From positions 1 to 16,718 of the forward strand of contig CACXJP010000033.1 of the NCBI GenBank assembly GCA_902768065.1: a stretch of DNA of 16,718 bases, given 5' to 3'. The notes below the pieces were generated by a model. The model did no database searches. It was not told where the DNA came from and worked only from the letters and a program-made list of their open reading frames with translations. A program made the translations under genes and the position numbers. Source of the DNA: an uncultured Erysipelotrichaceae bacterium. Lineage in GTDB: Bacteria > Bacillota_I > Bacilli_A > RF39 > UBA660. Shown here in pieces: positions 1 through 15,246 of the stretch; position 1 is the first letter of the stretch; each line of letters opens with the position of its first letter.

Positions 1-26
1 TTGATATTCATTTTATTTTCATTCAT
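1..26 (-). CDS. 5' end of a gene starting MNENKMNI, leaving the window (possible rbgA/ylqF start)
   Basis: A minus-strand ATG at 24-26 opens a frame reading MNENKMNI plus an incomplete AA- codon and runs off the left edge. It is preceded by a terminator, an extended -10 promoter and a weak GTGA-type ribosome site, so unlike the micro-ORFs elsewhere this copy looks like the start of a genuine, separately transcribed gene. The start matches the micro-ORFs repeated through the array. The expected next residues N-W would recall the N-terminus of RbgA/YlqF, the GTPase of 50S ribosome assembly (xINWxPGHM). Only eight codons are visible, so the identity is inferred from the repeat family and needs the sequence beyond position 1. 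Confidence 0.4.
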
Positions 27-58
27 AAGAATCACTTTTTAACACTTAAATCACTAAA

Positions 59-67
59 ATTGTATCA
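59..67 (-). promoter_or_regulatory. Extended -10 promoter in front of the left-edge gene
   Basis: The minus strand reads TGATACAAT, an extended -10 element (TGn plus TACAAT), directly after a terminator and about 33 bases before the ATG at 26. No clear -35 box is visible, which is usual for extended -10 promoters. Confidence 0.5.
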
Positions 68-97: not shown

Positions 98-937
98 TTA
101 ATGAGTCTCTATTAATTTATCATCATCTAAATATTGGTAATTCAAAGAGTTATCTTTAGATATAACTTTACTACCTGTTTCTTCTTCAAAAAAATCTTTT
201 GTTCTCTTTGCAACCCCTCCACCACGCTTGGCAACTTTTCTATTTTGATTTAATCCTTGAGGTTTTTCGTTTCTAGCAATTTCTCTAGTAGCTAGTTCAC
301 CAATATTTGTAATAGCAACTTCCAAATCAGTCATGTTATCTCTTAAATTTTCTTTTCGAATTCCTTTATAAGATTTATATTCCCCAGCAGTCATACCAGA
401 CCATTCTTTATAAATATCGTTAGTAAGTATTGCATATTCAACACCTTCTCTAACTCCATTTTCTTTCCATGTGTTTCTATCGATAATTGCTTTAATTCTT
501 GACTCAATCCATTCTAATGTATAACCTTTTTTTAATTAAAAGTCTATCATTTGATCAATACCCTTTGAAGGATCAAATGCCTCATCAATCTTATCACTAC
601 CTAGTTTTGCAAGCCACATTTTAAATGGTTCAGCTTTTGGAGATGGAATTGATTCAATCAATCTAAAGATACCTTTAGTATCTAATGTATCAGTTTCCCT
701 CATTTTTCCATCTTGAGCTTTTACTTTCAAACGTACGATTTTTTCGTACAGTTCACTTCCTTCATTAATAAGTTTTCTCTTTAAATCTGTCCAATACCTT
801 TTAGGTATATTAGAATCTGTAAGTACTTGTATAACATCGATAACACTAAAGTAGTAATCTTCTTTTTCAGCATCCCAAATACTTCTAATTTCCTTTCCAT
901 CAAATAGATTTGTAATTGTAGATAATTTATTATTCAT
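98..937 (-). pseudogene. BRO-family (Bro-N) DNA-binding protein, split by an in-frame TAA
   Basis: The frame starts at ATG 937 behind AGGGGGA and runs 280 codons to 98, but codon 134 (536-538) is TAA. The first 133 residues hold a Bro-N domain: FDGKEIRSIWD, YYFSVIDVI, RYWTDLKRKL, DTLDTKGIFRLIESIP, EPFKMWLAKLG. Reading past the stop gives LKKGYTLEWI, then WKENGVREGVEYAILTN, the segment with KGIRKENLRDNMTD (residues about 180-210), KVAKRGGGVAKR and a SLNYQYL tail. This is the continuous order expected of roughly 280-residue bacterial BRO proteins, which are often phage-linked antirepressor-like regulators. No base is gained or lost, so it is a nonsense change (a Tyr-like TAT/TAC to TAA would do). 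The N-terminal half alone could still bind DNA. It has its own promoter region and terminator, unlike the array genes. Confidence 0.85.
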
Positions 938-1133: not shown

Positions 1134-1197
1134 AATATCTAAACATAAAAATTTCGTTGAAAAATAAAGGAATCATATACGGGATCCACAAAAACGA

Positions 1198-1233
1198 TTA
1201 CAACCAGTTTATATTAGTTTTATTTTCATTCAT
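1198..1233 (-). CDS. Junction micro-ORF MNENKTNINWL (11 codons)
   Basis: AAAGGAG overlaps the TAA of the methyltransferase frame and is followed 8 bases later by ATG; the peptide MNENKTNINWL ends at TAA 1198. It is the reference copy of the junction repeat. The codons ACT AAT ATA AAC TGG TTG can be compared with the synonymous versions in other copies. It sits between the last array gene and the terminator. Confidence 0.5.
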   Translation of the reverse strand: MNENKTNINWL

Positions 1234-1247
1234 TTGGATCAACTCCT

Positions 1248-1851
1248 TTATTTTTTAGCAATAATTATTTTATAATTATCTGTTATACATGTTTCAACTG
1301 AACTAAATCCTACTTCTTTTAATATTTCAGTCTCATGTTCAATAGTAAGTGGAGTATCACAATGTTTTCCTTCACCCCCTTACAAGATTATAGTAATCTT
1401 CAAATAATTGTTTTTCGGTTTCTTCTTCTTCAGCAAAATAATCTTCATTAACAAAGACAACATCTTTTTTCAAGCACTCATATACTTTCTTATATAAAGT
1501 TAATTTATCATTTGATTCAAAATGATGTAGTGCTTGAGAAGATATAACTGCATCTATATTATTTTCAAAATCATAATCAAAGAAGCTTTTATTTACTATA
1601 GTAATATTATCACTTATATGTCTTTCTTCTAATTTCTTTAACATTCCATCTGATATATCAATAGCAGTAGTATGTACATTCGGATACACTTTATATAGTT
1701 TGATTAATTGTAATCCAGTACCTGTTCCTAAATCAATTACATTTTTCATATTTTCAGGTAAAAAATCTATTATCTTTTCTTTTGCTTCTATTAATTTTAG
1801 ATGTCTTTCGTCATAATCAATATCTACCACTCTATTAAAAAATTCATTCAT
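1248..1851 (-). pseudogene. Class I SAM-dependent methyltransferase, frameshifted in a G tract
   Basis: Residues about 40-55 read NVIDLGTGTGLQLIKL, the SAM-binding glycine loop (motif I); AIDISDGML is the acidic motif II and DAVISSQALHHF is motif IV of small-molecule methyltransferases. The frame beginning at ATG 1851 stops at 1372, but the next frame continues with GEGKHCDTPLTIEHETEIL and a typical ending VETCITDNYKIIIAKK, stopping at TAA 1248 exactly where the junction repeat begins. Removing one G from the G5 run at 1375-1379 restores one frame of about 200 codons. An upstream ATG at 1877 with a better ribosome site reads MDLNKRQ and would join NEFFNRVV if the ATGA doubling near 1850 were undone, so the start may also be damaged. 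The substrate is unknown. Confidence 0.85.
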
Positions 1852-1884: not shown

Positions 1885-2063
1885 TCACCTTTTTTTTATA
1901 TGTTCTTAACTTTCGTAATCACCTTGCAACTTCTTAATAAATAATCACCTATTTTTACCTATTTTTTACAATTTTTTTCAATTTTTAACTATTTTTATTA
2001 AAAATATGCAAGATACATTTTAGTGTTTTTACTTATTTTATAATACTTTAGGAGTGTTCTTAA
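1885..2063 (-). repeat. Long junction module between the ASCH gene and the methyltransferase
   Basis: This gene-free stretch (about 300 bases with the micro-ORF) aligns with 4765-4880. Shared blocks on the minus strand are TTATAAAATAA (about 2040), TGCATATTTTTAATAAAAATA (a 7-bp hairpin, about 1995) and CAAGGTGATTACG (1914-1926). The motif TTAAGAACA occurs at both ends of the module. No gene is visible in it. Confidence 0.55.
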
Positions 2064-2123
2064 TTAAATTGAAATCAACCAGTTAATGTTTGTACTTGGC
2101 AACTTTTCTTTTTTATCTTCCAT
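2064..2123 (-). CDS. Junction micro-ORF with a divergent start, MEDKKEKLPSTNINWLISI
   Basis: GAAGGAAAG precedes ATG 2123. Only the C-terminal TNINWLISI matches the family, and it is written ACA AAC ATT AAC TGG TTG ATT, synonymous with the usual ACT AAT ATA AAC TGG TTG ATA/ATT. A changed N-terminus with a preserved core and synonymous third bases argues that this segment was selected as protein. Confidence 0.5.
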   Translation of the reverse strand: MEDKKEKLPSTNINWLISI

Positions 2124-2176: not shown

Positions 2177-2566
2177 TTATTTATAATCATAGTCCCAAAG
2201 ACTTAATTTTCCGTTTAAAAAAATTGGTTCTATTTTTTTAACATTTTCAATTTTAAATCCATAACCATTCCATTCTGTATGTTTTATTATACTTGAATAA
2301 ACTAATGAATTTTTTTCCTTTAACATTTTCCTTGCTTCATCATCAATTTTTATACAGTCTGTCAAATTGACTTTTGCAATTATACATCCAGTTGGGTAAT
2401 CCAAATTATATTTTTCGAACTTTTGCATTGCCTTTTTATCTATACTTTTCCCTGCATGAATCAAAATTTCTCCTCTATATTTAGTTTTCCATGTTCTAAA
2501 TTCATATTCTTTTATTCCTTCTGCTATCAAGGATGCAAATGGTTGCTTAATTGTTATTACTTTCAT
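2177..2566 (-). CDS. ASCH domain protein (129 aa)
   Basis: This is a compact ASCH domain, a PUA-like beta-barrel fold that binds RNA or modified nucleosides. Recognisable parts: IKQPFASLIAEGIKEYEFRT near the N-terminus (the GxKxxExR signature is GIKEYEFR), WKTKYRGEILIHAGK, then GCIIAKVNLTDC and a C-terminal GKLSLWDYDYK. AAAGGAG lies about 13 bases before ATG 2566. Length and both ends look complete. The precise substrate is unknown; members of the fold include an N4-acetylcytidine amidohydrolase. A second, partial ASCH domain occurs at 13751. Confidence 0.88.
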   Translation of the reverse strand: MKVITIKQPFASLIAEGIKEYEFRTWKTKYRGEILIHAGKSIDKKAMQKFEKYNLDYPTGCIIAKVNLTDCIKIDDEARKMLKEKNSLVYSSIIKHTEWNGYGFKIENVKKIEPIFLNGKLSLWDYDYK

Positions 2567-2667
2567 ATTACAATTACTCCTTTTTTTCTAAATTTATAAA
2601 AATATGTAAAAATCTCAACATCAAAAATTCAATATTATCAAGGGTTTGAGTGTAGTTTTCCTAAAAT

Positions 2668-2703
2668 TCACGTATCGCAGTTTATATTAGTTTTATTTCC
2701 CAT
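2668..2703 (-). CDS. Junction micro-ORF MGNKTNINCDT
   Basis: AAGGAGGACTAAC precedes ATG 2703. Two codons are lost at the N-terminus relative to MNENKTNIN and the Trp codon has become TGC before the frame ends at TGA 2668. The following sequence contains TTACATATTTTTATAAA, a block shared with the long junction modules. Confidence 0.45.
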   Translation of the reverse strand: MGNKTNINCDT

Positions 2704-2769: not shown

Positions 2770-3267
2770 TTATAATCCTTTATTTTGATTAGTAATAATT
2801 CCTCTACTATTTAAAATATCAGATATATTACTATATTTTGACCAATTATCACCACTTAAAAGTTCTTTTTTCATAGGTAGCAGCTTATTGTATAAATCAT
2901 CAAATTCATAATTCAATGCATCTTCTAACAACACGCTATCCTTAGGAGCAATAAAATTTTGTTTTATTAGTATCTGATTAATTTGTGCATCCTCAACAAA
3001 GTTTGCAAGATCTTCATCAAATTTTGACAAGTCTTTTAATACACTTTTTTTGTGAAGAAAAAAATGTATGATTTCATGTGCAACAATAAAAGCTTGCTCC
3101 TCATCAGAAAAATCCAAGAACAAACGATTTGTATAAAATATTGTTTTTCCTTTTAAAAATGCAACTTCATCAGCTTCTTGAATATATTCAAAGTTTATTT
3201 GATACACGATTTTTTCTAAATATGGAAGCTTAATAGCTACTTTGCTTAATATTGAACCAATGTCCAT
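2770..3267 (-). CDS. Putative zinc metallopeptidase, DUF2201-like N-terminal domain (165 aa)
   Basis: The motif AHEIIHFFLH gives HExxH zinc ligands at His64 and His68 with catalytic Glu65. It is followed by FVEDAQINQILI (Glu92/Asp93 are candidate third ligands) and LNYEFDDLYNKL, the order seen in DUF2201-type metallopeptidase domains, which elsewhere are followed by a VWA-like domain absent here. The start ATG 3267 sits 7 bases after GAGGTGA. Behind the stop TAA 2770, sixteen more codons stay open until TAA 2719, right where the junction repeat begins; since other repeats start directly at a stop codon, the annotated stop may be premature. The role is unknown. Confidence 0.7.
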   Translation of the reverse strand: MDIGSILSKVAIKLPYLEKIVYQINFEYIQEADEVAFLKGKTIFYTNRLFLDFSDEEQAFIVAHEIIHFFLHKKSVLKDLSKFDEDLANFVEDAQINQILIKQNFIAPKDSVLLEDALNYEFDDLYNKLLPMKKELLSGDNWSKYSNISDILNSRGIITNQNKGL

Positions 3268-3298
3268 AAAAAATCACCTCTTTTTATATTGGCCTTGG

Positions 3299-3343
3299 CT
3301 AAATTGTTCTCAACCAATCAATATTTGTTTTATTTTCATTCAT
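3299..3343 (-). CDS. Junction micro-ORF MNENKTNIDWLRTI
   Basis: AAAGGAGTTGATC follows the peptidase stop and ATG 3343 opens 14 codons ending at TAG 3299. ACA AAT ATT GAT TGG TTG differs from the reference mostly at third bases (plus Asn to Asp). The next gene's GAGGTGA follows 15-20 bases later, so this is a short junction without the long module. Confidence 0.5.
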   Translation of the reverse strand: MNENKTNIDWLRTI

Positions 3344-3361
3344 TTAGATCAACTCCTTTTA

Positions 3362-4033
3362 TTATATTATTTTTTCATCAATTTTTTCACCATTACAAGT
3401 AATTTTATAAGTGTTTCTCAATGGATTACTTTTAATAACTTTTATATCATCGTCAATAAACTCTAACGCTACTTGATTATCAATTGCATAACCTATAATA
3501 TTTTTTTCTTTTACTACATTATAAAATTTATTTTTAGACATTTCATTCTTTTGATCATAATGTACACAATTAACTGCATTAATAACATTCATGCCTTCAA
3601 TTAAATCATAATTATATTTAAACCAGCAATAACTTCCAGCAGAAAGTCCAGAACAAACAATTCCAGAATCATATGCCTTGATTAGTATTTTATCAAGCTC
3701 CTTATCTTTTAATTCTTCAACAAGATGTCTTGTATTACCACCACCGATATAAATAATATCTGCATTTAAAATCTCTTTTTCTAATTCATTATGAGTTTTA
3801 TTTGTATCTAAATGTTTTACTATGCACCCTAATTCTTCATAGACTTTTTTTATTCCTTCAAAATATTCTTCAGGATGAGATGAAGCAATGCTAATAAATA
3901 AAAATTTGGGATGTTCTTTATTAGATAATTTTACGATTTCTTCGTCTATCTCTTTAGTTTCATATGGAAGAAAAACTCCATTTTTATATCTTGGAATTTC
4001 TCCTCCACCAATACATACTAATTTTTTACTCAT
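3362..4033 (-). CDS. Peptidase family S51 (peptidase E-like), 223 aa
   Basis: S51 is a class-I-amidotransferase-like fold with a nucleophilic serine, cleaving Asp-X dipeptides (peptidase E) or cyanophycin (cyanophycinase). Visible signatures are LVCIGGGEIPRY near the N-terminus, IIYIGGGNTRHLVE (about residues 92-106), the nucleophile elbow CSGLSAGSYCW with Ser131, and VHYDQ with His158, the likely catalytic partner. I place the start at ATG 4033 (MSKK), 8 bases after AAAGGA; the ATG at 4042 lies on the ribosome site itself. It is complete and its TAA abuts the junction repeat. The subfamily substrate is not determined. Another S51 member is at 13186-13731. Confidence 0.88.
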   Translation of the reverse strand: MSKKLVCIGGGEIPRYKNGVFLPYETKEIDEEIVKLSNKEHPKFLFISIASSHPEEYFEGIKKVYEELGCIVKHLDTNKTHNELEKEILNADIIYIGGGNTRHLVEELKDKELDKILIKAYDSGIVCSGLSAGSYCWFKYNYDLIEGMNVINAVNCVHYDQKNEMSKNKFYNVVKEKNIIGYAIDNQVALEFIDDDIKVIKSNPLRNTYKITCNGEKIDEKII

Positions 4034-4062
4034 ATTATTCATCCTTTCTTACTTGATTTTGA

Positions 4063-4742: not shown

Positions 4743-4764
4743 ATCTTGCACCTCTTTTTTAGGG

Positions 4765-4880
4765 GTTTAACTTCTCACCTTATCAATTCATATACTATTT
4801 TTACTTAAAAATAGTCATTTTTTACTAATTTTTATCATATTTTTATATAAAATATGTAAGATGTTATTTCGAGTTTTTCA
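4765..4880 (-). repeat. Long junction module with hairpin upstream of the SGNH gene
   Basis: Homologous to 1885-2063 (shared TTATAAAATAATG-like block, TTACATATTTTATATAAA, and AATTGATAAGGTGA). It contains a 9-bp perfect hairpin, ACTATTTTT (4794-4802) with AAAAATAGT (4807-4815). The plus strand at 4775-4793 matches 6411-6429 at 18 of 19 positions. TTAACCCC-like sequence stands at both ends of the module. Confidence 0.55.
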
Positions 4881-4955
4881 TTATTTTATAATGCTTTTCA
4901 AAGGGGTTAAATTAATTGTAATCAACCAGTTAATACTCGTTTTATTTTCATTCAT
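4881..4955 (-). CDS. Junction micro-ORF, 24 codons, MNENKTSINWLITI plus tail
   Basis: AAAGGAG precedes ATG 4955. The start MNENKTSINWLITI matches the family with ACG AGT ATT AAC, again mostly third-base changes; the frame then runs into the long module (NLTPLKSIIK) and ends at TAA 4881. Confidence 0.5.
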   Translation of the reverse strand: MNENKTSINWLITINLTPLKSIIK

Positions 4956-4973
4956 TTGGATTAACTCCTTTTA

Positions 4974-5390
4974 TTAGTCTTTAAAATCATCTTTCCAATC
5001 TTTATTAAACATTACTATACCATCAATAATAAAGTCGAATTTATTATAATATTTTTCTTTATCCATTTCAGTAGATAATATTCTTCTTCCATATCCGTCA
5101 TATTTTTTACAAAAATCATTCATCATAATTTTTCCAAGTCCTTGTTTCTGATATTTCGGTTTAATTAATAAATAAGTTATAAAAACATTAATCGCACCAT
5201 CATCAATAGCTGAAATTAACCCTATCAATTCATCTTCAATCCAAGCAGACATAACATATCCACTATTTTTTATAGCTGTATATAATCTATTAGGATATTC
5301 TGCAGTTTTCCATCCCACAGATGTAAATAGTTCTACTAGTTTTTCTTTTTCGATTTCCTTTTCGTATTTAAAAGTTATTTTTTCCATCAT
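4974..5390 (-). CDS. GNAT family N-acetyltransferase (138 aa)
   Basis: A single GNAT domain: core strand VFITYLLIKPKYQKQGLGKIMM carries the acetyl-CoA pyrophosphate loop Q-K-Q-G-L-G (motif A), followed by a helix and a C-terminal KYYNKFDFIIDGIVMF, the usual last strand. The N-terminus KLVELFTSVGWKTAEYPNRLYTAIKNS is common in small acetyltransferases of Bacillota. The substrate is unknown. Start ATG 5390 follows AAAGGA by 10 bases. That start region (AAAGGAAATGATTTAAATGATGGAAA) resembles the junction repeat leader, so this gene may have captured it. It follows the frameshifted gene by 14 bases. Confidence 0.88.
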   Translation of the reverse strand: MMEKITFKYEKEIEKEKLVELFTSVGWKTAEYPNRLYTAIKNSGYVMSAWIEDELIGLISAIDDGAINVFITYLLIKPKYQKQGLGKIMMNDFCKKYDGYGRRILSTEMDKEKYYNKFDFIIDGIVMFNKDWKDDFKD

Positions 5391-5404
5391 TTAAATCATT
5401 TCCT

Positions 5405-5829
5405 TTATATTTTATAATCATCCTTGGCACTTAAACTAATTATATTAATAATGCTATTATTATTTTTAAATTGTACTAACTCAAATGTATCATACTTTTT
5501 TATAATTGGATTCTCTATTTTATCTTTAAATTTTTCATAACTATCAACAAAATAATCTACTGAAATTCTATAATTGTTATAATTATCATCATGTTTTCTA
5601 ACTTTTATAAAAAATAAATCACCATAAATAGTTTCAATTGATTTTTTTATAAATTTCCACTAGACATTTCATCAATTATTCTATTATTAGCTAATTCATT
5701 ATTTATGATATCATAGTCTTCATTAGAATTAGAAAAAATAGTAACACAATCAATAATTTTATTTTCCTTGATTTTACTTATATCTTTATCATATTTTTTT
5801 AATTCTTTTTCAATTAGACTTTTAATCAT
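5405..5829 (-). pseudogene. Unrecognised small protein gene, frameshifted
   Basis: The frame from ATG 5829 gives 60 residues (MIKSLIEKELKKYDKDISKI at the start) and stops at 5647. One frame over, a long open stretch continues from KFIKKSIETIYGDLFF through RISVDYFVDSYEKFKDKI to SLSAKDDYKI, ending at TAA 5405 just before the GNAT ribosome site. One base appears missing around GTGGAAATTT (about 5652), next to an A7 run; restored, the product would have about 141 residues, with alternating polar and aromatic residues that suggest a small alpha/beta protein. I do not recognise the family. The gap to the histidine phosphatase gene is 16 bases, so both are probably co-transcribed. Confidence 0.65.
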
Positions 5830-5845
5830 AAAATAACCTTAACAA

Positions 5846-6373
5846 TTATAATTCATATTCTTTAACTTCAGTATTTTTTAAACCTAAGTTGAGCATTTTA
5901 CCATCTTCAGGAAGACCATTAAAATATATGTAAAATGCTTTTGATACTCCACTATGTGCTACTATTAAAACTCTTTTATAATTTTTAGTTTTAAGTTCAT
6001 CTAAAAACTCTTTTACTCTATTACATAAATCAGGAATTCTTTCTTCAGTATCATACTTAACATTAGTATAATAATTCCAATACTCTTCTCTATCAGTAAC
6101 ATCAACTGACTTGCCTTCTAAAGAACCATGTTTTCTTTCTACTAATCTTTCATCTATAATTATTTCTTTGTTATTAGCATTAATAATTTCTGCAGTATGA
6201 AAAGCACGAACTAATGGAGATGATATTACTATATCATAATCAATATCTTTTATCTTCTCTCTTAAATCTTCGGCTTGTTTATTTCCTTTTTCATTTATAT
6301 CTTCATTTACATAATTATATCTACCTATAACATTAGATTCACATTGTCCATGTCTTACCAAATACACCTTCAT
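5846..6373 (-). CDS. Histidine phosphatase family protein (175 aa)
   Basis: Branch 1 histidine phosphatase (phosphoglycerate mutase-like fold). MKVYLVRHGQCESN gives the RHG motif with phospho-acceptor His8; SSPLVRAFHTAEI supplies Arg56; LVERKHGSLEG the acid residue Glu79; VLIVAHSGVSK the second histidine, His140. Length and motif spacing are normal for small cobC/gpm-like phosphatases that dephosphorylate varied small molecules; the substrate cannot be read. Start ATG 6373 lies 7 bases after AAGGTGA. It ends 16 bases before the start of the frameshifted gene. Confidence 0.92.
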   Translation of the reverse strand: MKVYLVRHGQCESNVIGRYNYVNEDINEKGNKQAEDLREKIKDIDYDIVISSPLVRAFHTAEIINANNKEIIIDERLVERKHGSLEGKSVDVTDREEYWNYYTNVKYDTEERIPDLCNRVKEFLDELKTKNYKRVLIVAHSGVSKAFYIYFNGLPEDGKMLNLGLKNTEVKEYEL

Positions 6374-6394
6374 AATATCACCTTAATTATTCTA

Positions 6395-7650: not shown

Positions 7651-8511
7651 TTAAAAATTTTTATTTATCCATTCAAAAATCAATTTTGCTATTCCTTCTT
7701 CTTTTCCGTTATATGTATGTCCAGTATTTTCAATTATTTGACCTTCAAAATTATTACATTTTATTGCTTTATTCTTTAACAATTCAAATTGTAAATAATA
7801 ATCTTCTTCATTAGATCCTGAAAATGTTAGAATTGGAACATCGATAGATTCAAATTGATTCCATTTATTATTATTTCTAACAATTGGAAGATTATCAAGA
7901 TTAGATTTTTTATTAAACCAATTATAATATGTTTGTGAACTCATATACATATATTCTTCAATCTTCTTATGAAGCAATTTTGTTGGTTCACCATTATCAA
8001 TATTATTTTTTGCCTCAGTTATTAATTCAATATAATCATCTGATTGAACTAACATATGTGAACCTACCATATCTGGAGCACTTGCTAATATTATACCTAA
8101 AATATTAGGACGTTTTTTATAGTAATAATATATTATTTTATTACATCCATAACTATGCCCCAATAAAATAATTCTTTTATATCCTTTTTCTTTAGCAGTC
8201 TTTATTGCCAAATCAATATCATAAATACAATCTTCAAATATTTCATACATACAACCGCATCTTTTAAAAGAACCATCTTTCATAACAATATCATTTTCAA
8301 TTGAATGTCCCCTATTATGTTCATAGATAAATCCAATATCATTTGAAGATAAGTATTTACCCCAAACAGTTGCAAAATAATTATCTATAATTGTTCCACA
8401 CATACCATGAATACATATAACACAAATGTCTTTTTCCTCGCTTTCAAAATGAACCATAGGTAATTTTAAACCGTCTTCAGTATATGCATCACTAATAAAT
8501 TCAATATTCAT
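7651..8511 (-). CDS. Alpha/beta hydrolase (286 aa)
   Basis: Alpha/beta hydrolase fold: ICVICIHGMCGT (strand 3 and oxyanion HG), nucleophile elbow ILLGHSYGC with Ser120, IDVPILTFSGSNEEDYY (acid residue region) and ENTGHTYNG with His265. The sequence EHNRGHS in the N-terminal part and a cap-like insert of about 60 residues resemble the DUF1749/serine aminopeptidase-like hydrolases of Bacillota. It has no signal peptide. Start ATG 8511 follows GAGGTGA by 6 bases. The upstream junction is the longest combined one, carrying both the palindromic and the decayed leader modules. Confidence 0.9.
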   Translation of the reverse strand: MNIEFISDAYTEDGLKLPMVHFESEEKDICVICIHGMCGTIIDNYFATVWGKYLSSNDIGFIYEHNRGHSIENDIVMKDGSFKRCGCMYEIFEDCIYDIDLAIKTAKEKGYKRIILLGHSYGCNKIIYYYYKKRPNILGIILASAPDMVGSHMLVQSDDYIELITEAKNNIDNGEPTKLLHKKIEEYMYMSSQTYYNWFNKKSNLDNLPIVRNNNKWNQFESIDVPILTFSGSNEEDYYLQFELLKNKAIKCNNFEGQIIENTGHTYNGKEEGIAKLIFEWINKNF

Positions 8512-8594: not shown

Positions 8595-8727
8595 AATAAT
8601 TATTTATGAAAAAATGTAATTACTAAATATTTACTTTTTCCTATTTTATAGAAGTTTAAATGAATCTTTAACTAAAACAATATCAACTAGTTTATATTAG
8701 TTTTATTTTATTAATTTTGCTCAACTT
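8595..8727 (-). repeat. Long junction module with a decayed micro-ORF start
   Basis: The minus strand starts at the stop of the deoxyribosyltransferase-like gene with AAGGAAGTTGAGC, then ATTAATAAAATAAAAC in place of ATGAATGAAAATAAAAC, AATATAAACTAGTTGATATT and a CTATAAAATAGG block homologous to the modules at 2040 and 4890. The start codon is lost and Trp TGG has become TAG, so no micro-ORF is made. Confidence 0.5.
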
Positions 8728-8733
8728 CCTTAA

Positions 8734-10266: not shown

Positions 10267-10335
10267 TCATTCCTCCAAAATAATTTGGAATAGCAAATAC
10301 AAATATATGTTGATATTAGTTCTATTTTCATTCAT
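10267..10335 (-). CDS. Junction micro-ORF, 22 codons, MNENRTNINIYLYL plus tail
   Basis: GGAAAGTTGATTTCG precedes ATG 10335. The family start is kept (ACT AAT ATC AAC) but the Trp is lost, and the frame continues to TGA 10267, ending GAG GAA TGA on the ribosome site region of the PP2C-like gene. This geometry would allow translational coupling. Confidence 0.5.
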   Translation of the reverse strand: MNENRTNINIYLYLLFQIILEE

Positions 10336-10349
10336 CGAAATCAACTTTC

Positions 10350-13126: not shown

Positions 13127-13168
13127 TTACAGAAAGTATCCATCAATATTGTTTTTATTTTCATTCAA
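13127..13168 (-). CDS. Junction micro-ORF with TTG start, (L)NENKNNIDGYFL
   Basis: CAGGAGTTGATTTCA precedes TTG 13168; the frame reads NENKNNIDGYFL and ends at TAA 13127. It is the first micro-ORF in transcription order and the most diverged: the Thr codon is AAC and the Trp is gone. Confidence 0.4.
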   Translation of the reverse strand: MNENKNNIDGYFL

Positions 13169-13185
13169 TGAAATCAACTCCTGTA

Positions 13186-14624: not shown

Positions 14625-15212
14625 TTATTTGACTTTAACAATATCTCTTCCACCAGTTGTATTTGATTCAAATTCAATATTGCTGCCTACATGATAATCT
14701 CCATTTAATCCTGATATCGGAATCATAGAGCTATCATATATTGCTTGAATTACATCTTCTCGAGAAACATCGTATGTTACTCCATCTTTTTTTATTCTAA
14801 ATCCCTCAACCTTTTCGGCATCATCAGCATCTACAAAAGAAACTGCATACTTAGAACCATCATCCATTTTACTATCATATGTTACAATACAGTCTACAAC
14901 CACATCATCATCAGTAATGTGATGAGAATCATGTATTACTGTATCACCTTTTTCATTAACACTTAATCCAACCGGATATATAAGCTCATCATGTGGAAGC
15001 TTATTTAATAATTCAGTTTTATTAACAAAATATCTATGTCCCTCTTCAACAATAGAGTAATAGTTTTTAGGTTCTGCATCATCAACATCATCGAAATATA
15101 TCTTAGTATCTTTATCAACTGAACTACAACCTGTAAGTCCAGCAACAGCTATAACACCAGCACACACTAAAGCACATGCCTTTCTATTTATATGTAATTT
15201 ATTTATTTTCAT
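14625..15212 (-). CDS. Secreted lipoprotein with two related segments (195 aa)
   Basis: A lipoprotein signal peptide: basic start MKINKLHINRK, hydrophobic CALVCAGVIAVAG and lipobox LTGC with Cys29, so the mature protein is anchored outside the membrane. Two parts look related: DDVDDAEPKNYYSIVEEGH with YFVNKTELLNKL, and DADDAEKVEGFRIKKDGV with YDVSREDVIQAI, suggesting an internal duplication. Highly acidic. No known family recognised. The start is ATG 15212, about 10 bases after GAGGGGGA; a longer frame to 15245 includes the promoter-proximal sequence and is unlikely. Confidence 0.8.
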   Translation of the reverse strand: MKINKLHINRKACALVCAGVIAVAGLTGCSSVDKDTKIYFDDVDDAEPKNYYSIVEEGHRYFVNKTELLNKLPHDELIYPVGLSVNEKGDTVIHDSHHITDDDVVVDCIVTYDSKMDDGSKYAVSFVDADDAEKVEGFRIKKDGVTYDVSREDVIQAIYDSSMIPISGLNGDYHVGSNIEFESNTTGGRDIVKVK

Positions 15213-15246
15213 CTTATTTATATCCCCCTCAATAAAAATATACATG

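What the first reader, a model, noticed from the sequence alone, without database searches (positions are those of the whole stretch)
1..67. The micro-ORFs may be copies of the 5' end of rbgA/ylqF, the possible insertion site of the array
At the left edge the same MNENK-NI start sits behind a terminator and a TGATACAAT promoter and runs out of the window as a gene. RbgA/YlqF GTPases begin xINWxPGHM, which fits NINW. If units insert at that point, each insertion would duplicate the start of the gene at a junction, and synonymous differences would reflect different source genomes. Insertion into the 5' end of conserved genes is known for integrative elements such as SXT in prfC. A gene-cassette array using an rbgA start would, as far as I know, be undescribed.
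Basis: partly seen in the sequence, partly recalled or inferred. Interest (0 to 1): 0.8.

Follow-up and report, generated by a model that had tools for sequence, protein, structure and literature searches.

The report
Gene-cassette array at rbgA start
Some gut bacteria appear to collect small foreign genes one behind another by inserting each at the very start of the same essential ribosome-assembly gene, so that every insert carries a fresh copy of that gene's first codons.

Summary
The micro-ORFs are copies of the 5' end of rbgA. Of 163 matches to a DNA pattern for MNENK.[NS]I[ND]W in public contigs, 60 run on into RbgA ([YF]PGHM); 102 of the other 103 stop within 53 codons. In relatives such arrays end at rbgA, nearly all cassettes pointing its way. 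Homologous cassettes from different genomes agree up to one dinucleotide (AA[C/T]-TG-G) and not beyond, reach 85-97% identity where the rbgA bodies share 68-80%, and 0 of 88 neighbour pairs recur. A conjugative element with the same left-end module follows the array in four genomes; in one it runs on the same contig to a pair of large serine recombinases directly before rbgA, in the other three recombinase and rbgA lie on a second contig. Best reading: small elements stacked at the rbgA start by serine recombinases acting in trans. Site and exchange point are well supported; the enzyme is inferred from position. The window's left edge stops 26 bases into a site, so what follows there is unknown. 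The rbgA 5' end is a known ICE target (Tn5253); my paper searches showed no such array.

The parts
1..36 (-). Attachment-site copy cut by the window edge (MNENKMNI..); what follows lies outside
   Evidence: (20.6 bits)
98..937 (-). Cassette with a BRO-N gene, open frame interrupted (536-937 and 98-394); relatives in other arrays 72-80% identical
1181..1250 (-). Attachment site, micro-ORF MNENKTNINWL; TG at 1206-1205
   Evidence: (59.4 bits)
1372..1851 (-). Cassette gene, methyltransferase; stretch 1201-2014 is 89.8% identical to an array of G002 (L077/L179)
2058..2093 (-). Attachment site, left half diverged (..TACAAACATTAACTGG); TG at 2081-2080
   Evidence: (18.6 bits)
2177..2566 (-). ASCH cassette; 2079-2698 is 97.9% identical to a Clostridia MAG array (L013), the match starting in one site and ending at the next
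2655..2698 (-). Attachment site, TGC variant; TG at 2679-2678
   Evidence: (21.0 bits)
2770..3267 (-). Cassette gene, putative metallopeptidase domain
3291..3359 (-). Attachment site, micro-ORF MNENKTNIDWLRTI
   Evidence: 52.0 bits
3362..4042 (-). Cassette gene, peptidase S51; stretch 3321-4054 84.8% identical to L087
4057..4124 (-). Attachment site, micro-ORF MNENKTNINWLITI
   Evidence: 53.9 bits
4122..4751 (-). Cassette gene, GDSL-like hydrolase
4752..4928 (-). Left-end module after the TG: R1, A-tract region and R2-like repeat, before the GDSL gene
4902..4971 (-). Attachment site, micro-ORF MNENKTSINWLITINLTP
   Evidence: 55.8 bits
4974..7580 (-). Cassette genes: GNAT, histidine phosphatase, DapB_N, DUF2000 and a small ORF; inner boundaries decayed or not found
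   Evidence: 5380-6383 is 89.8% identical to L060
7606..7651 (-). Attachment site with one base missing before TGG
   Evidence: (27.9 bits)
7651..8511 (-). Cassette gene, alpha/beta hydrolase
8667..8730 (-). Attachment site with TA in place of TG
   Evidence: (29.7 bits)
10309..10346 (-). Decayed attachment site (MNENRTNIN..)
   Evidence: (25.1 bits)
13146..13184 (-). Decayed attachment site
   Evidence: (20.5 bits)

Best explanation
The window is part of a tandem array of small integrative gene cassettes. Each cassette is one, sometimes a few, genes bounded by attachment sites. Its 3' end carries a ribosome-binding site plus the first nine codons of rbgA (MNENKTNIN, up to the TG of the Trp codon); its 5' end begins after that TG, in most cases with a module R1 - about 120 bp of A-tract DNA - R2. 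The attB is the 5' end of rbgA. Recombination across the TG inserts a cassette; the displaced rbgA start becomes a micro-ORF, and the cassette's own copy becomes the new rbgA start, so the essential gene stays intact. Repetition builds the array (sequence evidence strong). The enzyme is inferred to be a large serine recombinase, often a pair, supplied in trans by a conjugative element with the same ends or by recombinase genes in the array.
For: Pattern: 60 of 163 matches run into [YF]PGHM. Arrays end at rbgA in G010, G008 and G014; in G007 two genes follow the last detected site before rbgA. Breakpoint: among 194 unique sites, 513 pairs homologous only on the right have 0.95 and 0.97 identity at +2 and +3 (T of TG = 0; unrelated pairs 0.77 and 0.75), and 57 pairs homologous only on the left are at background there, 0.68 and 0.74. 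In a search not requiring TG, T is kept in 171 and G in 169 of 175 non-rbgA copies, the next G in 149. Conjugative element: in five genomes the 300 bp before TG are 93.0-98.7% identical and the 300 bp after it (rbgA) 69.9-78.3%. Its left end starts at the same TG with the same module in four genomes. A pair of recombinases lies directly upstream of rbgA in G001, G017, G002, G031 and G036; contigs cut by their edge show the second one in G004 and G047. Resolvase, Recombinase and zinc-ribbon domains were confirmed for the pairs of G001 and G031. Recombinase genes lie between sites in the G006 array and upstream of the sites in L118. Cassettes: 112 of 114 with an ORF point the same way, 82 of 115 hold one forward ORF, median 946 bp; 16 families occur in two or more genomes and 0 of 88 neighbour pairs recur. 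R1 and R2 match within cassettes (111 cassettes, mean 18.3; 2000 permutations mean 14.8, max 16.0).
Against: No excised circle, no strain-level gain or loss, no recombination assay. Array, conjugative element, recombinase pair and rbgA lie on one contig only in G001; in G002, G017 and G004 the right end with rbgA is on another contig. Seven of 28 genomes have no Recombinase-domain hit, among them array carriers G005, G008 and G014 (drafts, completeness not told), so many arrays sit without a detectable enzyme. R1 types of cassettes are more varied than the one seen in the conjugative element, so it need not mobilise all. The right half of the empty site (rbgA) differs from R1. Left-hand identity is not clean evidence on its own: at -4 and -10 right-homologous pairs also exceed background a little (0.58 and 0.63 against 0.50 and 0.52), and at -1 left-homologous pairs hardly exceed it (0.56 against 0.52).
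Confidence: 0.8

Rival explanations
1. Same array, but cassettes are moved by a tyrosine integrase of the Tn5253 kind.
For: Tn5253 uses the same place, after nucleotide 20 of rbgA, with Int and Xis. 26 of 28 genomes have some tyrosine recombinase.
Against: The conjugative element at this site carries serine recombinases next to rbgA; its one tyrosine recombinase hit in G001 lies inside it between genes that look like HsdS (recalled). In G007, G014, G019 and G021 a tyrosine recombinase lies some 5-6.5 kb downstream of rbgA, as expected for housekeeping codV/xerC (synteny recalled). Two genomes, one of them with a micro-ORF copy (G009), have none (drafts).
Confidence: 0.1
2. The repeats are passive: units spread by homologous recombination between the conserved sites.
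For: Sites are long and alike, some are decayed, and several array carriers show no recombinase.
Against: Exchange points cluster at TG; the synonymous positions -4 and -10 follow the left neighbour (0.70 and 0.77; unrelated 0.50 and 0.52; right-homologous 0.58 and 0.63). Homologous recombination would place exchanges all along the 45-base left half.
Confidence: 0.07
3. RNA-guided recombination of the IS110 kind, the arm being a bridge RNA with R2 as guide.
For: R1 and R2 match within cassettes and the arm is a conserved non-coding stretch of fitting length.
Against: Transposase_20 has no hit in 13 of 19 genomes searched (drafts). The matching boxes lie on one side of the exchange and reach about 26 bases from it. 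No Rfam match in the window.
Confidence: 0.03

Closest known systems
Tn5253-type ICEs at the 5' end of rbgA (streptococci, enterococci)
   Same: Target gene, position just after the Trp codon, restoration of the coding sequence; in some a new upstream region
   Different: One large ICE with tyrosine Int/Xis; no array of single-gene units in the parts I read
Dehalococcoides ssrA genomic islands
   Same: Tandem islands bounded by repeats of the end of an essential gene, CcrB-like serine recombinase plus a smaller one, islands without recombinase thought cis-mobilizable (12 of 27 passages)
   Different: 3' end of a tmRNA gene; islands rather than cassettes of about 1 kb; no R1/R2 module in the passages read
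SCC / enterococcus cassette chromosome (CcrAB)
   Same: Paired large serine recombinases, site in a conserved gene (12 of 35 passages)
   Different: 3' end of rlmH; large elements; the recombinases here score 94 and 92 bits on the CcrB model, cut-off 900
Integron gene cassettes
   Same: Arrays of short, mostly single-gene units in one orientation, reshuffled between genomes (integron side recalled)
   Different: Array abuts rbgA, not an integrase gene; each unit carries a coding start of the target gene
CIME accretion
   Same: Elements that keep att sites but lack integration genes, stacked at one site (passages)
   Different: Many one-gene units sharing a conserved end module

Membership tests
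Integron | Integron integrase gene next to the array | tested here: inconclusive
   At the rbgA end of G010, G008, G014 and G007 no integrase adjoins; the far end was not mapped and no IntI-specific model was run
Integron | attC sites | not tested
   No attC model was run; the Rfam search of the window gave no match at all
SCC (CcrAB) | CcrA and CcrB orthologues | tested here: not met
   G001 pair: CcrB model 94.2 and 91.6 bits, cut-off 900; CcrA 69.1 and 56.4, cut-off 700
SCC (CcrAB) | Integration at the 3' end of rlmH | tested here: not met
   Junction is in the Trp codon of rbgA
Tn5253-type ICE | Integration at the 5' end of rbgA | tested here: met
Tn5253-type ICE | Tyrosine Int/Xis at the element's right end | tested here: not met
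   In G001 the right end carries two large serine recombinases
Tandem serine-recombinase islands / CIMEs | Units without recombinase bounded by att repeats, stacked at one conserved gene | tested here: met
Tandem serine-recombinase islands / CIMEs | Mobilisation by the recombinase of a neighbour | not testable with these tools
   Only shared ends and co-location seen
IS110 / bridge RNA | Transposase_20 recombinase | tested here: not met
   6 of 19 genomes have a hit, none on a contig where I had found cores

The most novel reading that the evidence does not exclude
A gene-capture platform independent of integrons: large serine recombinases collect single-gene cassettes in tandem at the start of an essential GTPase gene, in Bacilli and Clostridia of animal guts, and each capture replaces the promoter, ribosome-binding site and N-terminal codons of that gene.
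Probability: 0.55. Interest if true: 0.9.

Novelty: new variant of a known kind. Interest (0 to 1): 0.8.

Why it matters
Integrons are the textbook case of reshuffled arrays of single genes. This would be a second route to the same result, with another enzyme class, in lineages where integron arrays are not usual (recalled). It points to a reservoir of mobile small genes in rumen and gut bacteria, offers a reason why RbgA N-termini vary so much between relatives, and gives a defined site, a defined dinucleotide and candidate enzymes for testing. Serine recombinases with natural arrays of sites may also be useful DNA-assembly tools.

Tried and rejected
The own genome of the window is not held, so the sequence left of position 1 could not be read; the loci with similar ends or genes that I looked at (L081, L051, L291) do not settle it. 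Tyrosine recombinases near rbgA were considered first and set aside as xerC synteny. IS110 was considered because of the R1/R2 match and set aside. Xer/pdif modules were considered from memory only: the core looked partly dif-like to me, but the exchange point lies on the outer side of that stretch; no dif model was run. Rfam: no match. PADLOC on 10 of the 25 window proteins gave matches for four: BRO-N to candidate systems PDC-S13/S04, and mad2, capP and PDC-M11B, the last two weak; not followed. Plasmid search with one recombinase: 257 records, all below 60% identity, some annotated TndX. The weak profile hit at 7143-7114 is the start of the DapB_N gene and was dropped; the one at 10937-10917 (7.9 bits) was dropped as too weak. 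Exact-pattern counts favour synonymous forms, so the synonymous test used cores found by nucleotide distance (up to 8 of 30 differences): 128 non-rbgA cores, codons 2-9, 121 synonymous and 84 nonsynonymous changed codons, neutral expectation 15%; with at most 4 differences, 101 cores, 92 and 24; in the 59 not matching the pattern, 57 and 81.

Papers: PMC6079316, PMC13055272, PMC4701971, PMC5704250, PMC3146451 and PMC6222049 were seen as passages; of PMC8571831 I saw the outline with abstract and part 1 of 2 of the results section. The listings (empty), 46, 64, 65, 79, 80 and 90 were read; by title and start of abstract no listed paper describes an array of cassettes at rbgA. Preprints and most subscription journals are not in the library.

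Full report
What is in the window. I took 25 predicted genes forward, all on the minus strand, short and functionally unrelated (Pfam): BRO-N, methyltransferase, ASCH, metallopeptidase, two S51 peptidases, GDSL hydrolase, two GNATs, histidine phosphatase, DapB_N, DUF2000, alpha/beta hydrolase, YgjV, an AAA_33 protein and one with an AAA_28 match just below the cut-off, Sel1, HlyIII; the others have no match or only one below the cut-off. Six exact copies of ATGAATGAAAATAAAA lie on the minus strand. A profile of the site made from other loci finds eleven sites at 18.6 bits or more, none on the plus strand; 60 shuffled windows reach 13.0 at most. The left-edge copy is real but ends after 26 bases.

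What the micro-ORF is. Of 163 matches, 60 continue into [YF]PGHM, the RbgA motif (recalled), and 103 do not; 102 of these stop within 53 codons and four of them are rbgA genes with an extra base. The genes at the rbgA position of G010 and G001 carry the 50S ribosome-binding GTPase domain. Records are MAGs named Bacilli, Erysipelotrichaceae, Bacillales, Tenericutes, Clostridia and the like, many from rumen, rabbit or other animal guts. Twenty-eight of these genomes were searched whole; within each contig the copies all lie on one strand.

Where the arrays sit. In G010, G008 and G014 the array runs into rbgA; in G007 two genes follow the last detected site and then rbgA with another N-terminus. 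In the family of G001, rbgA of G062 starts 56 bases after lepB with the short start MEKINW, whereas in G056 and G073 other genes, in G073 including a serine recombinase, lie between rplS-lepB and rbgA. RbgA N-termini before INW are very diverse in 40 distinct loci listed (one without a called start): MAEINW, MEKINW, MTNINW, MNENKTNINW, M..RQNSTNINW, KGLHKSVINW, GVNKIGINW and others. Of 75 rbgA loci one pair was close enough for comparison: G007 and G065 have rbgA bodies 94.2% identical, and their upstream 200 bases align at 66.7%, the N-termini differing up to NINW. Sites followed by the usual R1 also occur with an RQN-type left half (L269), so the left half varies by lineage.

The exchange point. 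Homologous cassettes in different settings match up to the site, or into the next cassette's similar end module. The window's ASCH cassette is 97.9% identical over 620 bases to one in a Clostridia MAG; at its start the two differ before the TG and agree after it. Over 194 unique sites, pairs that share only the right neighbour rise to 0.95 and 0.97 identity at the second and third base after the T of TG, pairs that share only the left one are at background there. T and G of this dinucleotide are kept in 171 and 169 of 175 non-rbgA copies, the following G in 149. The search for required TG; one search did not.

Transfer. Between genomes whose rbgA bodies are 68.2-79.7% identical, shared cassettes reach 85-97% (matches under 350 bases or 85% were not listed; one further pair, G028 and L053, with rbgA 81.4%, shares a 99.5% stretch of 386 bases). 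Of 115 cassettes, 112 of 114 with an ORF have the longest one in rbgA's direction, 82 have one forward ORF, and the median length is 946 bases. Sixteen of 84 clusters occur in two or more genomes, and none of 88 neighbour pairs recurs, though 13 pairs join two shared clusters.

The conjugative element. In G001, on one contig, the array is followed by a conjugative element, then two large serine recombinases, then rbgA. ParB, SSB, VirB4-like and VirD4-like genes were identified in the G002 copy, which is 94.3% identical to that of G001 over 14.9 kb. The same element follows the array in G002, G017 and G004; there the recombinases (in G004 only part of the second) and rbgA are on another contig. 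Its left end begins at the site with a module like that of the cassettes. At its right end the 300 bases before TG are 93.0-98.7% identical among G001, G002, G004, G017 and G047, and the rbgA bases after it 69.9-78.3%; a more distant relative, G036, is 78.2-81.8% before and 68.0-74.5% after. Among 35 family loci fetched, a serine recombinase is the nearest upstream gene in four (G031, G036, G047, G081) and one gene away in G073; nine of the 35 have under 400 bases upstream of rbgA. In the G006 array two serine recombinase genes lie between sites, and in L118 a pair lies upstream of two sites.

The end module. R1, the 26 bases after TG, and R2, usually about 150-160 bases further, resemble each other within a cassette far more than between cassettes (111 cassettes, mean 18.3 against permuted 14.8, maximum 16.0 of 2000). 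Both have two short boxes. I infer that they are bound by the same recombinase, the boxes fitting its two DNA-binding domains (from general knowledge of serine integrases). Cassettes with a short leader lack the arm and R2. This inference is untested.

Reading-frame signature. Codons 2-9 of 128 non-rbgA cores differ from consensus by 121 synonymous and 84 nonsynonymous codons; a neutral site would give about 15% synonymous. This fits cassettes that take turns as the true rbgA start.

Distribution. With up to two mismatches the core occurs in 19 of 58 genomes of the family of G001, nine of them with two or more copies, several of these known beforehand; and in 8 of 149 genomes drawn from its class, four of them (G001, G036, G070, G081) from that family set. 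The reversed pattern gives none.

Known and new. The rbgA 5' end is a known ICE target with a tyrosine integrase. Tandem islands with CcrB-like serine recombinases at an essential gene are known in Dehalococcoides, and stacked elements without own integrase are known as CIMEs. I found no paper on arrays of single-gene cassettes at rbgA. I therefore call it a new variant of a known kind. Shown by sequence: the site, the sharp exchange point, the transfer between genomes. Inferred: the enzyme, supply in trans, the role of R2, and the order of events.

Noticed in passing
L032, L048, L092, L064 (rbgA) and L293-L312: In four Clostridia MAGs rbgA is out of frame by one base at a CGG codon just after the core (NINWYP-CGGN-HMAKT or HMEKT); reading CGGN as one step restores the gene, and in L032 the second break is also at a CGG. 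In twenty 20-kb stretches of four MAGs (three of these and G223), 5, 7, 2 and 3 long frames are joined by CGGN, against 0-1 for each of seven control words; some contexts look like glycine positions of RpoC, UvrB, UvrA and Walker A (recalled), others I could not place. In-frame CGG is rare (6 of 28066, 14 of 26566, 2 of 22058, 3 of 27866 codons). Possibly a quadruplet or +1-shift reading of CGGN as glycine; the listing of one paper search shows no such report.
   Followed up: partly
window 98-937: The BRO-N gene is interrupted: 536-937 and 98-394 are two open frames of what is one gene in relatives such as L081 (284 aa).
   Followed up: no
L169:12535-16602 (G001): Inside the conjugative element a 321-aa tyrosine recombinase lies between genes that look like restriction specificity subunits, as in invertible type I systems (recalled); a similar layout is seen in L175.
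   Followed up: no
L101 4172 (minus) and L119 17468 (plus): The same cassette (97.3% over 811 bases) occurs with and without the R1-R2 arm, as if the arm can be lost between the two repeats.
   Followed up: partly
L136 (G006), L221, L282, L289: Single serine recombinases of 406-417 aa, shorter than the pairs, occur in or near arrays or near rbgA.
   Followed up: partly
window 14625-15245: Lipoprotein-like gene (by eye) without Pfam match near the right end; the profile found no site of 7.9 bits or more beyond 13184.
   Followed up: no
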